This document shows, piece by piece, positions 5,603-32,239 of a stretch of DNA of 64,000 bases; position 1 is the stretch's first letter, and each line of letters opens with the position of its first letter. The position numbers and the translations under genes were made by a program. This DNA is from Arthrobacter sp. Soil763 (GTDB lineage: Bacteria > Actinomycetota > Actinomycetes > Actinomycetales > Micrococcaceae). The notes beneath the pieces were generated by a model. It made no database searches and was not told the DNA's origin. It was given only the letters and a program-made list of their open reading frames with translations. The stretch lies in NCBI RefSeq assembly GCF_001428365.1, contig NZ_LMSH01000007.1, forward strand, positions 5,168 to 69,167, written 5' to 3'.

Positions 5603-6421
5603 CTAAACAGCCTGGTTCAGCACCGGTCCTTGCGGGAAGATGGCCCGGGTGATGCCGCCGGCCGTAGCCTGCGACAACTGGGCGAGGTAATCGTTGCGTC
5701 GGCGCGGGGTAATCCGCGACTGCGGCTCAAAGCCCTGGTCCGGGTCGTCCGCGTAATGGGCCGTGAGCCCGTCGCGCATCAACCGGATGGCCTCCGCGCG
5801 TTGCTGCGACACGGCGGCGTGCGTGGAGCCCAGTTCCGCGGCGAGGTCCTTAACGGTCCGGTCACCAAAGTAGATTTCTTCGACGACGTAGCGCATCCGC
5901 TCCGGCAGGGATTTCACAGCCGCCCGGAGGTACTGCAGGCGCTCGTCGGCGAGGACCGAGCTTTCCGGCGACAGCGTTTCGGCGGCCAGCGTGTCGACGA
6001 CGGCGTCGTCCAGGGGGGTGAGGGTGCGGGAGGCGTCCGCGAGGGCAGCTTCGACGACGCTTTGCTGGACGCCCAGCGCCGAGGCGATCTCCTCCACGGA
6101 CGGCGTGCGGCCGAGTGCGGCCGCCAGGGTTTCCTGCACCGACATGGTCTCTTTGATCCGCCGTCGGGCCGAGCGCGTGGCCCAGTCACTGGCGCGCATC
6201 TCGTCGGCGAAGGCACCGAGGATGCGGCGGCGGGCGAAGGCGCCGAAGGGCACGCCGAGGCCGGGATCAAAGGAGTCGGCCGAGGTAATCAGGGCCACGG
6301 CGCCAGCCGACGCCAGATCATCGCGCGAGAGGTGGGACGCCTTCGAGCACAATTCTGAGACGAGGTAGCCGACCAGCGGAAGATGCTGGATGACCATCTC
6401 GTTGCGTTCCACGCGATTCAA
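5603..6421 (-). CDS. fliA: Flagellar-type sigma factor (sigma-28, FliA/WhiG family)
   Basis: 272 residues. Region 2 begins near residue 5 (ERNEMVIQHLPLVGYLV) and includes the core-binding and -10 recognition helices (GVPFGAFARRRILGAFADEMR). Region 3 lies around 100-130 (LGRTPSVEEIASALGV), and region 4 around 167-215 (LPERMRYVVEEIYFGDRTVKDLAAELG, with the helix-turn-helix STHAAVSQQRAEA). Region 1 is absent, as in sigma-28. Four sigma-28-like promoters in this island make it the likely flagellar sigma. The start is TTG with GGGGGGA upstream. A C-terminal extension of about 50 residues after region 4 is unusual. No anti-sigma FlgM gene is seen in the window. Confidence 0.85.
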   Translation of the reverse strand: MNRVERNEMVIQHLPLVGYLVSELCSKASHLSRDDLASAGAVALITSADSFDPGLGVPFGAFARRRILGAFADEMRASDWATRSARRRIKETMSVQETLAAALGRTPSVEEIASALGVQQSVVEAALADASRTLTPLDDAVVDTLAAETLSPESSVLADERLQYLRAAVKSLPERMRYVVEEIYFGDRTVKDLAAELGSTHAAVSQQRAEAIRLMRDGLTAHYADDPDQGFEPQSRITPRRRNDYLAQLSQATAGGITRAIFPQGPVLNQAV

Positions 6422-6648
6422 TAGTGTTGTCCCCCCATGAGACCGGATCAGGAGTTTTAAAACCCTGAGAGCCGCACCCTCAAACGGTCCCGCACTCCCC
6501 CCATGGGAGGCGGTGTTCGAAGCCCGGGCGCAGCACCCAGAACGAAACCTATCACCTGATCCGGAATCTGCGTGTACCCTCAGGGAAAAGCTTGGCGGAA
6601 AATGCGGAAAGCCGTAATTTGGCCGGGATGACGGGGGAAATTGGGCCC

Positions 6649-7164
6649 ATGGGTGCAGGGGATCTTTCGGCGGCGCTGTGGCAGGAACGCCGGCAGCTCG
6701 AGCTGCTGCTGTTCCGGCTGGAAACCCAGCGCCTTCACCTCACCGCCGGCAACATCGAATGGTTGTCCTTTACCGCCTCGGAGGTGGAGTCCGTCCTGGA
6801 CCGGCTGCGCTTCGAGGCGCTGGCCAGAAACGTCGAATCGGCGGCGGTTGCGGCCGAGTGGGGGCTGCCGGCGCAGGCGACTCTGATCGAATTGATCGCC
6901 GCGGCACCGCCGGGCGCCTGGCCGGATGTCCTGCGGGACCACCTCGAGGGACTGCGTGCCCTGCTCATCCGGCTCGAGGACGCTGCTGCGGCCAGCGAGC
7001 GCATGATCCTGGGACTGGAGCTGCCGGCCGGCACGGGCGACCCGGCCGCGATGGTCGAGCAGCTGACGATGGCCGGGAACGTCGAACGCGCCCTGTCCAT
7101 CACGCGCCGCGCAGCGCAGCCGTTGTTGATGCAGTACCTGGGCGACGACGCGAACTCGCACTGA
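6649..7164 (+). CDS. FlgN-like flagellar export chaperone, first copy
   Basis: About 171 helical residues. It is clearly a paralogue of the gene at 31754: both start M...LSA-LW-ER--L, then have LTAG near residue 30, WGLP near residue 70 and APxGAW near residue 85. FlgN binds the hook-filament junction proteins FlgK and FlgL and keeps them export-ready. This copy stands alone, divergent from the sigma gene and convergent with csrA, without flgK beside it, so its client may differ. The upstream frame stays open to a TTG at 6592, but similarity between the copies begins at ATG 6649. The region 6422-6648 shows no gene and no convincing sigma-28 promoter. Confidence 0.65.
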   Translation: MGAGDLSAALWQERRQLELLLFRLETQRLHLTAGNIEWLSFTASEVESVLDRLRFEALARNVESAAVAAEWGLPAQATLIELIAAAPPGAWPDVLRDHLEGLRALLIRLEDAAAASERMILGLELPAGTGDPAAMVEQLTMAGNVERALSITRRAAQPLLMQYLGDDANSH

Positions 7165-7207: not shown

Positions 7208-7459
7208 TCAGTCCCGGGCGGGCGGGGGCAGCAGCCCGCGCAGCGCATCCTCGGTGCCGGACCCGGCTTCCGCGCCGGCTTCGGCGGCCGCCAGGTTCGC
7301 GGCGGCGATCGCTTCGATGACTTCGCGCCGCTGGATCGGGACGCCGCGGGGCGCTTCGATGCCGATCCGGACACCGTCGCCGCGGCCTTCAAGAACAGTG
7401 ATGACGATGCCGTCGCCGATCATGATCTGTTCGCCCGGCTTGCGTGTAAGTACCAGCAT
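7208..7459 (-). CDS. csrA: Carbon storage regulator, translational repressor
   Basis: 83 residues beginning MLVLTRKPGEQIMIGDGIVITVLE, the CsrA/RsmA hallmark. The RNA-binding residues near the second edge strand (GVRIGIEAPRGVPIQRREV) are present, and an Ala-rich tail follows. CsrA dimers bind ANGGA motifs in mRNA leaders. In Firmicutes and Epsilonproteobacteria CsrA represses flagellin and is titrated by FliW; fliW is at 34579 here, and the flagellin leader has two suitable motifs. It is the last gene of the long leftward flagellar unit, 9 bp after the FlhF-like gene. Confidence 0.95.
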   Translation of the reverse strand: MLVLTRKPGEQIMIGDGIVITVLEGRGDGVRIGIEAPRGVPIQRREVIEAIAAANLAAAEAGAEAGSGTEDALRGLLPPPARD

Positions 7460-17521: not shown

Positions 17522-17809
17522 TTACTTTCTTGGTGGTTCAGGTGCGGAGGGGTCGACGTCGTCATCCGCCTCGGCCGGCGGGACCAGGCTCAGCGGGAAA
17601 CCGGTAACCGCTGGAAAGTCCCGGGCTTTGCTGAGCACGTAGGCACGGTAGTCGGCAATCAGCTCCACCACCTCGGCGAGGCTTTCCAGCACCACGTAAG
17701 CGGCGCCGTCGAGCGTGACCAGGTGGGTGTCCGGGCTCTCGTGGATCCGTTCAATCAGGTCCGGATTGACCGCGAAGCGCGTTCCGTTGAGGCGAGTGAC
17801 AACGATCAT
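17522..17809 (-). CDS. flbD: Flagellar protein FlbD
   Basis: 95 residues. The MIVVTRLNGTRFAVNPDLIERIHESPDT start, given here as MIVVTRLNGTRF and the central TLVTLDG-like LVTLDGAAYVVLES, matches the short FlbD family found beside motA in Gram-positives. Its role is not well established. The C-terminal 35 residues are acidic and extra. First gene after a sigma-28-like promoter and 3 bp before motA. Confidence 0.9.
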   Translation of the reverse strand: MIVVTRLNGTRFAVNPDLIERIHESPDTHLVTLDGAAYVVLESLAEVVELIADYRAYVLSKARDFPAVTGFPLSLVPPAEADDDVDPSAPEPPRK

Positions 17810-28170: not shown

Positions 28171-28557
28171 TCAGCCGTTGACGTCGAGGTAAATCGCGCC
28201 CGCGGGATCGCCGACGCCGGGCACCGAGCTGACCGCCTGCAGTTGCCGCCCGACGTCGTGCTTGGCCGCTTCCAGGCGCCGGGCCACCCGCTCCTGCGCC
28301 GCGGAGAGGGCCATGGCCCGGCGTCGCGCCTCGGGCGGCAGCGGGGTGTGCAGTGAGGGCGGCGACCAGCGCTCCACCGGGAGGGCGGCGACCGGCTGCG
28401 CGACCGCGGACAGCGGTCCCAGCGGATCCTTCAGAGTTTTTTCGGCCGCCACGACGGCCATCTCCAGTACGTCCAACACCAGCATCCAGGCGGCCAGTGC
28501 GGGATCTGCCCCGGCCGGCTCTGCGCTGCGGTTCCCCCAATGAGCCTGCTCAGCCAA
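28171..28557 (-). CDS. Unrecognised protein downstream of fliS (possible FliT-like chaperone)
   Basis: About 128 residues from a TTG at 28557 that overlaps the fliS stop; an ATG at 28614 further inside fliS is also in frame. I see no known motif. It is a helix-rich protein (AWMLVLDVLEMAVVAAEKTL; then RRAMALSAAQERVARRLEAA), with a Pro-rich linker and a small C-terminal part ending GAIYLDVNG. Position directly after fliD-fliS is where fliT, the FliD chaperone, often sits, but the sequence is not clearly FliT. Codon use matches the neighbours. Confidence 0.6.
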   Translation of the reverse strand: MAEQAHWGNRSAEPAGADPALAAWMLVLDVLEMAVVAAEKTLKDPLGPLSAVAQPVAALPVERWSPPSLHTPLPPEARRRAMALSAAQERVARRLEAAKHDVGRQLQAVSSVPGVGDPAGAIYLDVNG

Positions 28558-29068
28558 AGCCCAGGCTCCCGCTGCCGGCACCGGTTTGGGCGTTCCAGGC
28601 TCCGGCTGCCGCAAACGCCGACGCCGGGGCTGCCGCCGGGGCTGGCTGGGTGGCCGGCGCGACCGGGATGGACGCGGCGGCTTCGTGCCAGGCCTGGCGC
28701 AGCGGCTCCAACAGCTCGATCGCTTCGCGGGTCAGGGCGGCGTCGCGCTGGATGTTGGCGTTGACGAGGGCGGTGAAGGCGTAGTTGTACAGGCCCAGCA
28801 GCCCGTCCGCGCCGTCCCACGCGTCCGTCTTGAGCGAGGAGATCAGTTCGGCGATGATGGCCTGGCCGTGGAGCAGGTTCTCGGAGGCGACCGGCCAGTT
28901 GCCGGTCTGTTGCGCGGTCTCGGCGCGGCCGAGGTCCAGCAGCAGCCGGTCGTACAGCATGGTCAGCAGGCGGGCCGGAGGTGCCGAGAGCACCGAGTCG
29001 GCGAGGTACTGGTTCCGCTGGGCGGCGCCGCCGAGGCCGCCGCCGTAGCCGAAGGGGGTGCTGGTCAT
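28550..29068 (-). CDS. fliS: Flagellin export chaperone FliS
   Basis: 172 residues. The first 130 are FliS (NQYLADSVLSAPPARLLTMLYDRLLLDL, in part ARLLTMLYDRLL; LYNYAFTALVNANIQ). FliS caps the flagellin C-terminus before export; in Bacillus it also takes part in the FliW-CsrA circuit by freeing FliW. An Ala/Pro tail of about 40 residues is extra. The start overlaps the fliD stop (TAATG). Confidence 0.95.
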   Translation of the reverse strand: MTSTPFGYGGGLGGAAQRNQYLADSVLSAPPARLLTMLYDRLLLDLGRAETAQQTGNWPVASENLLHGQAIIAELISSLKTDAWDGADGLLGLYNYAFTALVNANIQRDAALTREAIELLEPLRQAWHEAAASIPVAPATQPAPAAAPASAFAAAGAWNAQTGAGSGSLGFG

Positions 29069-30615: not shown

Positions 30616-31470
30616 CTAGCGCAGGAGCGAGAGAACGCCCTGGCTGGACTGGTTGGCCTGCGCCAGCATTGCGGTGCCGGCCTGGGACAGGATGTTGGCC
30701 TTGGTGAACTTGACCATTTCCGAAGCCATGTCGACGTCGGCGATGCGGGACTGAGCGGCCTGCAGGTTTTCACCGGCAACGTTCAGCGACTTGATCGTGT
30801 GCTCGAGGCGGTTCTGGGCAGCACCCAGATCTGCGCGGGAAGCGGACACGGCGCCAATGTGCGTGTCCACGGTGGCGATCGCTGCTGCCGACGTGGTGGC
30901 GTCAGTGAAGGTCAGGCCCTTCACGGCGGTGGCGATTGCCTTGACGTCCATGCCTGCAGAGTTGGTGGAAACAGTGATCTGGTTGTCAGCAGTGGTGGAA
31001 CCGGCACCGACCTGGAAGGTCATCTTGCCCGTACCGTCGCCTGAGGTGGCGCCGGAGAGGAGCTTGATGCCGTTGAAGTTGGTCGCCGAGCTCATGCGGT
31101 CCAGCTCGTCGCCGAGAGCCGTGACTTCCTTGCCGATCGCCGTGCGGGCGGCGGCGTTGTTGGAGTCGTTGCCGGCCTGGACGGCGAGGTCACGCACACG
31201 CTGCAGGATGGAGTGGACCTCGGTCAGGGCGCCTTCAGCGGTCTGGATGACCGAGATGCCGTCCTGGGCGTTGCGGGCGGCCTGGGCCGAGCCGGTGACC
31301 TGGGACTTGAGGCCCTCGGAGATGGACAGACCTGCTGCGTCATCGCCGGCGCGGTTGATGCGAAGGCCGGTGGACAGCTTCTCCAGGGACTTGGAGAGGT
31401 CGGTCTGGGTGGAGTTGAGGTTGCGGTACGAGTTGTTCGCCGCGAGGTTGTTGTTGATAACGAAGCCCAT
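30616..31470 (-). CDS. fliC: Flagellin
   Basis: 284 residues, a short flagellin. The D0/D1 N-terminus (INNNLAANNSYRNLNSTQTDL; LSTGLRINRAGDDAAGLSIS) and C-terminus (EMVKFTKANILSQAGTAMLA) are intact, ending LLR. The variable middle is only about 70 residues, so the D2/D3 domains are missing or tiny. It is a single copy in this window. Its leader carries a sigma-28-like promoter and two CsrA-type sites. GGAGG lies 7 nt before the ATG. Confidence 0.97.
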   Translation of the reverse strand: MGFVINNNLAANNSYRNLNSTQTDLSKSLEKLSTGLRINRAGDDAAGLSISEGLKSQVTGSAQAARNAQDGISVIQTAEGALTEVHSILQRVRDLAVQAGNDSNNAAARTAIGKEVTALGDELDRMSSATNFNGIKLLSGATSGDGTGKMTFQVGAGSTTADNQITVSTNSAGMDVKAIATAVKGLTFTDATTSAAAIATVDTHIGAVSASRADLGAAQNRLEHTIKSLNVAGENLQAAQSRIADVDMASEMVKFTKANILSQAGTAMLAQANQSSQGVLSLLR

Positions 31471-31477
31471 GGTATTT

Positions 31478-31520
31478 CCTCCGTGAGTTGGGACTGTAAG
31501 CGATGGCCCGTCCGTGGGCC
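31478..31520 (-). promoter_or_regulatory. Candidate CsrA-binding sites in the flagellin leader
   Basis: On the minus strand a hairpin GGCCC-ACGGAC-GGGCC (31520-31505) exposes ACGGA in its loop, the preferred CsrA presentation. A second ACGGA (31484-31480) runs into the Shine-Dalgarno GGAGG (31482-31478). Two sites, one over the ribosome site and one about 30 nt upstream, copy the arrangement known for Bacillus hag. Confidence 0.65.
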
Positions 31521-31531
31521 TTCAGCAGTAG

Positions 31532-31558
31532 CTATCGCCACCCGAGCGGCATAGGTAA
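31532..31558 (-). promoter_or_regulatory. Sigma-28-like promoter for fliC
   Basis: Minus strand TTAC (31558-31555), 15-nt spacer, GGCGATAG (31539-31532), two bases away from the flgN2 promoter. A start about 7 nt downstream would include the whole CsrA hairpin in the mRNA. A second -10-like GCTGATAA (31617-31610) exists but lacks a -35 at the right distance. Confidence 0.55.
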
Positions 31559-31628
31559 GGAGAAATCCAAAATTCTTTTCTGAGTTCCGGGCCGCCCATA
31601 CTCCGCCTGTTATCAGCCTTATTTCCGC

Positions 31629-31655
31629 TAACGGGTGCGGAAATCCTGCCGATAG
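31629..31655 (+). promoter_or_regulatory. Sigma-28 promoter for the flgN2-flgK-flgL-fliW unit
   Basis: Plus strand TAAC (31629), 15-nt spacer, GCCGATAG (31648-31655). It is divergent from the fliC promoter about 70 bp away and about 100 bp before the flgN-like gene. Confidence 0.8.
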
Positions 31656-31753
31656 TTTGTACGAACCCTGCTGCTGGCTGCATCGTCCGCACGATGAATT
31701 TGCGCCTCGGCACCGCCGCACCACTCGCACCTATAAAGGGAGCCGTCCGAACC

Positions 31754-32239
31754 ATGGCCATCCACGAACTTTCCGCCCTGCTGTGGCGGGAGCGTGAACT
31801 CCTGGACGTTCTGACCTTCAAGCTGGAGGAAGAACAGCTGCTGCTCACCGCCGGCAAGTCCCGCTGGCTGCCGCACGGCACCAAGGAAGTCGAACAGGTC
31901 CTGGGCCACCTCTCCCAGGCGAGCCTGGCCCGTACCATCGAAGCCGCCGTCGTCGCCGAAACATGGGGCCTGCCCACCGATGCCACCCTCGGCGAGCTCG
32001 CGGACGCCGCGCCGGAAGGGGCCTGGGCCGAAGTGCTCCGGGCGCATCTTGCAGCACTCACCCGCCAAACCGCCCTGATCAAGGAACTCCGCGACTCCAA
32101 CGAGCAGTACCTGCGCACCGCTGTCCGTTCCACCCAGGAATCCCTCGCGGACCTGCGTCCTGCCGCCGCCGGGACCTACGACGCCCACGGCAGGACCGGG
32201 GATACCGCCGGCTCCCGCATCTTCGACCAGCAGTTCTAA
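31754..32239 (+). CDS. flgN: FlgN-like chaperone, second copy
   Basis: About 161 helical residues, directly before flgK, where flgN is expected. Paralogue of the gene at 6649 (shared LSA-LW-ER, LLLTAGK, AETWGLPTDATLGEL, AAPEGAWAEVL). It should chaperone FlgK and FlgL. ATG 31754 aligns with the other copy; the frame is open to ATG 31694 without a ribosome site. GGGAG lies 11 nt upstream. Confidence 0.75.
   Translation: MAIHELSALLWRERELLDVLTFKLEEEQLLLTAGKSRWLPHGTKEVEQVLGHLSQASLARTIEAAVVAETWGLPTDATLGELADAAPEGAWAEVLRAHLAALTRQTALIKELRDSNEQYLRTAVRSTQESLADLRPAAAGTYDAHGRTGDTAGSRIFDQQF

What the first reader, a model, noticed from the sequence alone, without database searches (positions are those of the whole stretch)
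31478..31558. A complete CsrA-FliW-flagellin switch in an actinobacterium, with leader sites visible
csrA (7208) and fliW (34579) are in the same island. The fliC leader has GGCCC-ACGGAC-GGGCC and a second ACGGA overlapping GGAGG. Bacillus hag has the same two-site arrangement, where CsrA blocks translation until FliW titrates it. Such a leader is not well known for Actinobacteria. A sigma-28-like promoter placed just upstream would transcribe both sites.
Basis: partly seen in the sequence, partly recalled or inferred. Interest (0 to 1): 0.8.

Follow-up and report, generated by a model that had tools for sequence, protein, structure and literature searches.

The report
CsrA-type switch on actinobacterial flagellin mRNA
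[quoted passage not shown] the same element, with compensating base changes, stands before the flagellin genes of its flagellated relatives, so the flagellin switch known from Bacillus very probably works here too.

Summary
The fliC leader (minus strand) has a perfect 5-bp hairpin with hexaloop ACGGAC (31505-31520), a second site CACGGAGG over the Shine-Dalgarno (31478-31485), and a weak sigma-28-like promoter upstream. csrA and fliW are real and in the same island. The hairpin is far beyond chance: 122 of 122 flagellin leaders from 99 genomes of the order carry an ANGGAN hexaloop hairpin at the right place (3.4% of shuffles), the stem changes with compensation while the loop stays, and a model built without the window's family finds the window leader at 54 bits. 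Of 396 genomes 97 have flagellin and csrA, 3 and 6 one alone, 290 neither. Best reading: the CsrA-FliW-flagellin checkpoint of Bacillus. Binding and expression were not tested. It is a new member of a known kind: CsrA control of an actinobacterial flagellin was proposed for Kineococcus in 2008 from the Shine-Dalgarno site. Two variations go further: in most families csrA and fliW are not side by side, and outside the window's family and two others 32 of 36 flbD leaders read have a like hairpin, which suggests control of motor genes too. The window lacks that site.

The parts
31505..31520 (-). Site 1: hairpin GGCCC-ACGGAC-GGGCC, CsrA-type GGA in a hexaloop
   Evidence: like hairpin in 122 of 122 leaders; covariation
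31478..31485 (-). Site 2: CACGGAGG, ACGGA overlapping the Shine-Dalgarno sequence
   Evidence: CA before GGA in 106 of 122 leaders (summed) against 6 of 50 control sites
31532..31558 (-). Putative sigma-28-type promoter TTAC-N15-GGCGATAG
   Evidence: a GCCGAT-like hexamer ends 15-19 nt before the hexaloop in 97 of 122 leaders; start site not mapped
30616..31470 (-). fliC, flagellin (284 aa)
7208..7459 (-). csrA (83 aa), only copy found in the genome
34579..34968 (+). fliW (129 aa), after flgN-flgK-flgL
5603..6421 (-). sigma factor, nearest to FliA/WhiG, candidate reader of the promoter
   Evidence: TIGR02479 125 bits, below its cut-off of 189.6
28550..29068 (-). fliS, flagellin chaperone

Best explanation
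A CsrA-FliW-flagellin checkpoint. A sigma-28-type promoter starts a short fliC leader whose 5' end folds into the ACGGAC hairpin (inferred). A CsrA dimer holds the hairpin loop with one face and the ACGGA over the Shine-Dalgarno, 31 nt downstream, with the other, and so keeps ribosomes off fliC (inferred from Bacillus hag). While flagellin stays in the cell it holds FliW; once the hook is finished and flagellin is exported, freed FliW binds CsrA and fliC is translated (inferred). Shown here: the sites, their conservation with covariation, and the co-occurrence of the three genes.
For: 122 of 122 leaders (109 distinct hairpin segments) from 99 genomes have the ANGGAN hairpin with its loop ending 33-51 nt before the start codon; loops ACGGAC 47, ACGGAT 43, others 32. 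Stem, 44 leaders: 86.4% of cells paired against 64.4% shuffled and 23-52% slid; 59 cells changed on both sides against 20.2 shuffled; covariation score 0.506 against 0.145. Model R1 over 60 genomes: the flagellin leader is the best hit in 29 of 29 flagellated genomes (34-60 bits), 13 of which gave nothing to the model; none of 25 genomes without a flagellin hit exceeds 25.8 bits. R2 without the window's family: 54.4 bits at the window leader. 14 of 14 named loci L002-L015 have the hairpin. Of 396 genomes of the order 97 have flagellin and csrA, 3 flagellin only, 6 csrA only, 290 neither; FliW in 98 of 100 flagellated (70 of 72, 28 of 28). CsrA's nearest solved sequence is 5dmb_D, of an entry that also holds FliW. 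Two-site hag repression in Bacillus: PMC7652899, passages.
Against: Nothing biochemical was done. The promoter is weak and the start unmapped. Leader fold energy ordinary. One covariation measure does not exceed its control: 5 pairs with a change on both sides against 4.7 shuffled (337 of 500 shuffles as high) and 6 when slid by -1. SELEX ligands of CsrA mostly had four or fewer contiguous pairs (PMC7652899 passage), and this stem is five G-C pairs. L052 and L065, titled Solirubrobacterales and Actinomycetota, carry a csrA hit but no hairpin by this rule. Outside the order the hairpin is found in 35 of 50 genomes by a looser rule, 34 of 50 for the first leader against 19.3% of shuffles. One flagellated genome, G172, has the leader and csrA but no FliW by PF02623. 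CsrA and FliW fall below NCBIfam equivalog cut-offs though above Pfam's.
Confidence: 0.88

Rival explanations
1. The inverted repeat is a DNA operator for a transcription factor next to the promoter.
For: It is palindromic and lies just behind the -10-like element.
Against: Operators as a rule keep their half-sites (recalled); here the arms change with compensation while the non-palindromic loop ANGGAN stays, and a second copy of the core sits on the Shine-Dalgarno.
Confidence: 0.04
2. The hairpin is a 5' stabiliser or RNase shield of a highly expressed mRNA and has no CsrA role; the Shine-Dalgarno match is ordinary.
For: The hairpin is predicted close to the 5' end of an mRNA expected to be abundant; fold energy of the whole leader is ordinary.
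Against: A stabiliser needs no invariant GGA loop; CA precedes GGA in 106 of 122 leaders against 6 of 50 control sites. All hits of 30 bits or more are in genomes with csrA, which is weak support because nearly all flagellated genomes have csrA.
Confidence: 0.05
3. CsrA binds, but acts mainly on mRNA stability or as an activator (this may overlap with the best explanation).
For: CsrA also lowers hag transcript level in Bacillus by an unknown route that needs the binding site (PMC6529632 passage).
Against: Site 2 overlaps the Shine-Dalgarno, the arrangement of ribosome blocking (PMC7652899 passage).
Confidence: 0.12

Closest known systems
Bacillus subtilis Hag-FliW-CsrA checkpoint
   Same: CsrA, FliW and flagellin present; two GGA sites in the flagellin leader, one in a hairpin loop and one over the Shine-Dalgarno. 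The hag leader of B. tequilensis (L045) shows the same layout by eye.
   Different: Stem and loop sequence differ; csrA and fliW are 27 kb apart on opposite strands here, whereas translational coupling of fliW and csrA helps to set their ratio in Bacillus (PMC6529632, passages).
Kineococcus radiotolerans proposal (PMC2587704)
   Same: CsrA proposed to act on an actinobacterial flagellin mRNA through a site like Bacillus BS2 (passage read).
   Different: One genome, the Shine-Dalgarno site only; the passages shown mention no hairpin site, and FliW does not occur in the main text.
Campylobacter jejuni CsrA-FliW network (PMC4894983)
   Same: FliW-controlled CsrA and flagellin mRNA.
   Different: Seen only in search listings with the start of the abstract; not compared in detail.

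Membership tests
CsrA-FliW-flagellin checkpoint | CsrA orthologue | tested here: met
   PF02599 86.5 bits, single copy; L4 and R44 present by reading (their role in RNA binding recalled); 3-5 bits below NCBIfam equivalog cut-offs
CsrA-FliW-flagellin checkpoint | FliW orthologue | tested here: met
   PF02623 76.2 bits; matches solved FliW 5dmb_A at E 1.1e-4; below NCBIfam equivalog cut-offs
CsrA-FliW-flagellin checkpoint | GGA site in a hairpin loop of the flagellin leader | tested here: met
CsrA-FliW-flagellin checkpoint | second GGA site overlapping the Shine-Dalgarno | tested here: met
CsrA-FliW-flagellin checkpoint | CsrA C-terminal extension contacted by FliW | tested here: inconclusive
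   83-aa CsrA aligns to 5dmb_D through residue 65, N55 included; contact not modelled, role of N55 recalled
CsrA-FliW-flagellin checkpoint | CsrA binds the leader and blocks translation | not testable with these tools
   needs binding and expression assays
CsrA-FliW-flagellin checkpoint | FliW binds flagellin and frees fliC from CsrA | not testable with these tools
   needs protein assays and mutants
sigma-28 regulon | sigma-28-type promoter | tested here: inconclusive
   TTAC-N15-GGCGATAG in the window; GCCGAT-like hexamer at 15-19 nt from the loop in 97 of 122 leaders; start unmapped
Rfam RNA families | match to any of 4227 models | tested here: not met
   none at E <= 5 in 31300-31900

The most novel reading that the evidence does not exclude
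In most families of this order the CsrA-FliW checkpoint also covers the motor: the flbD (swrD) gene, which stands before motA in the window, has its own sigma-28-type promoter and in those families a like ANGGAN hairpin with CA before the GGA at the ribosome site, so flagellin and stator would be released together when the hook is done. The window's family and two others have lost, or never had, that site while keeping the flagellin site; and fliW and csrA have come apart in all but two of the families scored.
Probability: 0.6. Interest if true: 0.65.

Novelty: new member of a known kind. Interest (0 to 1): 0.5.

Why it matters
It gives order-wide comparative evidence, with covariation, that an RNA checkpoint studied in Bacillus, Campylobacter and Clostridioides governs flagellin in Actinobacteria, where I found only proposals in print. 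It also supplies natural experiments: flagellin control kept although csrA and fliW are unlinked, and a second, family-dependent site before a motor gene.

Tried and rejected
Fold energy of the leader: uninformative. A loose hairpin count (any GGA in a 4-8 nt loop within 120 nt) was too permissive: 26% of shuffles reach 5 pairs against 91 of 121 distinct leaders, so the strict ANGGAN rule was used. Rfam: no match. The window genome's second R1 hit (21.1 bits, C3) led to nothing convincing; of 20 places fetched, 10 precede flbD, 2 flagellin, 2 a response regulator, and 6 nothing consistent. The window flbD leader was tested and has no hairpin. Named loci from outside Actinobacteria: 55 of 64 pass the rule, but start codons there were set roughly (L045 was set wrong; read again), so that count is only indicative. 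The Actinosynnema PhoP paper (PMC9019756, passages) lists csrA, fliW and a deduced swrD-motA-ompA-fliL operon; the passages show no CsrA site. PMC10746217 (passages) names CsrA and FliW only among the proteins sought.

Full report
The thing itself. On the minus strand the fliC start codon is at 31470. Upstream lie CACGGAGGAAATACC (31485-31471, site 2 at its head), then the hairpin GGCCC-ACGGAC-GGGCC (31520-31505), then GGCGATAG (31539-31532) and, 15 nt further, TTAC (31558-31555). GGA to GGA is 31 nt. With a start some 7-9 nt behind the -10 (recalled rule), the hairpin would sit near the 5' end of the mRNA; this was not mapped. csrA, fliW, fliS, flgN-flgK-flgL and a FliA/WhiG-like sigma factor are in the same island.

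Conservation in the order. Flagellin (E <= 1e-20) was found in 100 of 396 genomes of the order. Leaders were read from 99 of them (G064's gene starts off its contig), 122 leaders in all with paralogues and the window. All 122 have an ANGGAN hexaloop ending 33-51 nt upstream of the start with at least 3 of the 4 inner pairs, 104 with all 4; dinucleotide shuffles give 3.4% and 0.3%. Pairs 3 and 4 show C-G, G-C, U-A and A-U types among 109 distinct segments. On an alignment of 44 leaders, one or two per genus, 86.4% of cells pair (64.4% shuffled, 23-52% slid) with 59 double changes against 20.2 shuffled; but the number of pairs with any double change, 5, is no higher than in shuffles. Related sequences can inflate such counts; the slid controls share that relatedness.

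Specificity. Model R1 (44 leaders) was run on 60 chosen genomes, with the tool's stricter filters. In 29 of 29 flagellated ones the top hit is the flagellin leader; 16 of the 29 had a leader in the model, 13 had not. In the window's genome it scores 58.1 bits, the next place 21.1. Of six genomes with csrA but no flagellin hit, two (G225, G378) have a hit at 30.6 and 31.5 bits before a flagellin-like start; of the other four one has 23.4 bits and three nothing. The 25 genomes without a flagellin hit (22 of them also without csrA; csrA was not sought in G417, G432 and G444) reach at most 25.8 bits. R2, without the window's family, finds the window leader at 54.4 bits and, weakly, leaders L016, L020 and L029 of Bacillota (18.5, 17.7, 15.2 bits); a place in L065 that is not its known flagellin leader scores 17.4, so these weak hits are near the noise.

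Partners. csrA is in 103 of 396 genomes: 97 with flagellin, 6 without. Three flagellated genomes have no csrA hit (G032, G129, G163); all three are drafts of 570 to 1060 contigs, 88-99% complete, and still have the leader hairpin. FliW is in 98 of the 100 flagellated: 70 of 72 (not in G163 and G172) and 28 of 28. Outside the order, the 50 flagellated genomes of a sample of 396 from the phylum (54 with flagellin, 4 of them in the order) have csrA in 49 (one partial) and FliW in 48.

Outside the order the leader is more varied. GGA hairpins such as GGC-AAGGAT-GCC occur, but the rule needed is looser: 35 of 50 genomes, 34 of 50 for the first leader against 19.3% of shuffles. L052 and L065 have a csrA hit but fail the rule. 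I claim the element firmly for the flagellated genomes read in the order, and only as a tendency for the phylum.

Site 2. In 106 of 122 leaders CA precedes the first GGA near the ribosome site (summed; in nine of the rest the script took a GGACC that is not the Shine-Dalgarno). In 50 control genes with a GGA there, CA precedes it in 6. The controls came from a rough gene call in the window and L002-L015.

A second target. R1 hits of 19-29 bits recurred before a small protein, 14-42 kb from fliC or on another contig; it is FlbD (PF06289; SwrD in Bacillus), followed by motA in the window. FlbD is in 78 of 78 genomes searched. I read 54 leaders: the 30 best protein matches, 20 chosen for spread, the window, and 3 that the RNA model itself had found. 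32 of 54 have the hairpin (29 of 51 without those three), 27 with all four inner pairs; shuffles give 4.4% and 0.6%. By family: 0 of 11 in the window's, 0 of 2 and 0 of 5 in two others, 32 of 36 in the remaining eleven; 54 of 54 have a GCCGA-like -10 within 130 nt, a loose test without a control. In the hairpin-bearing leaders CA precedes the GGA of the ribosome site in 26 of 32. Pairing over six pairs is 0.85 against 0.27-0.61 slid. That this is CsrA control of motor genes is inference.

Gene order. fliW and csrA are side by side on one strand in 16 of 96 genomes of the order (12 of 12 in family f15, 4 of 4 in f17) and in 37 of 45 scored outside it (two more left out by oversight). In the other 80 of the order they are far apart (64), on different contigs (14) or near but on opposite strands (2). 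In Bacillus coupling of the two helps to set their ratio (PMC6529632, passages), so the window's lineage must set it otherwise.

Print. Searches for CsrA, FliW and Actinobacteria or actinobacterial genera, SwrD or FlbD with CsrA, and broader ones in open-licence PMC papers brought PMC2587704 and PMC4682653 as the nearest prior statements. I saw none describing the hairpin site or a flbD site in Actinobacteria, but I read passages or listings only, and subscription papers, such as the 2016 FliW-CsrA papers cited in PMC7652899, were not seen.

Verdict. The element is real, under RNA-level selection, and best explained as a CsrA-FliW flagellin switch: a new member of a known kind, with two variations worth testing.

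Noticed in passing
window 17522-17809 (-) and L242-L245, L247-L249, L251, L253, L256, L262-L311: flbD has a sigma-28-type promoter and, in most families read but not the window's, a CsrA-type hairpin.
   Followed up: partly
L257 (G106) and L259 (G014), hit ends at the GTG start: A like hairpin with different arms stands before a LuxR-type response regulator gene in two genomes of one genus: a possible third target.
   Followed up: no
G172 (L148, L244): Both flagellin and flbD leaders carry the hairpin and csrA is present, but no FliW was found by PF02623.
   Followed up: no
L222 and L223 (G433, outside the order): Two flagellin leaders with the window's hairpin stem, GGCCC-ACGGAY-GGGCC, in a family outside the order.
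   Followed up: no
window 6592-7164 (+): A second FlgN-like protein (PF05130, 35.9 bits) lies tail to tail with csrA, besides the flgN before flgK.
   Followed up: no
L254 (G378), L255 (G225): The RNA model led to flagellin-like genes that the flagellin search had not listed.
   Followed up: partly
L065 6723-6780 (+): A 17.4-bit R2 hit about 1 kb past the known flagellin match; the gene behind it was not examined.
   Followed up: no
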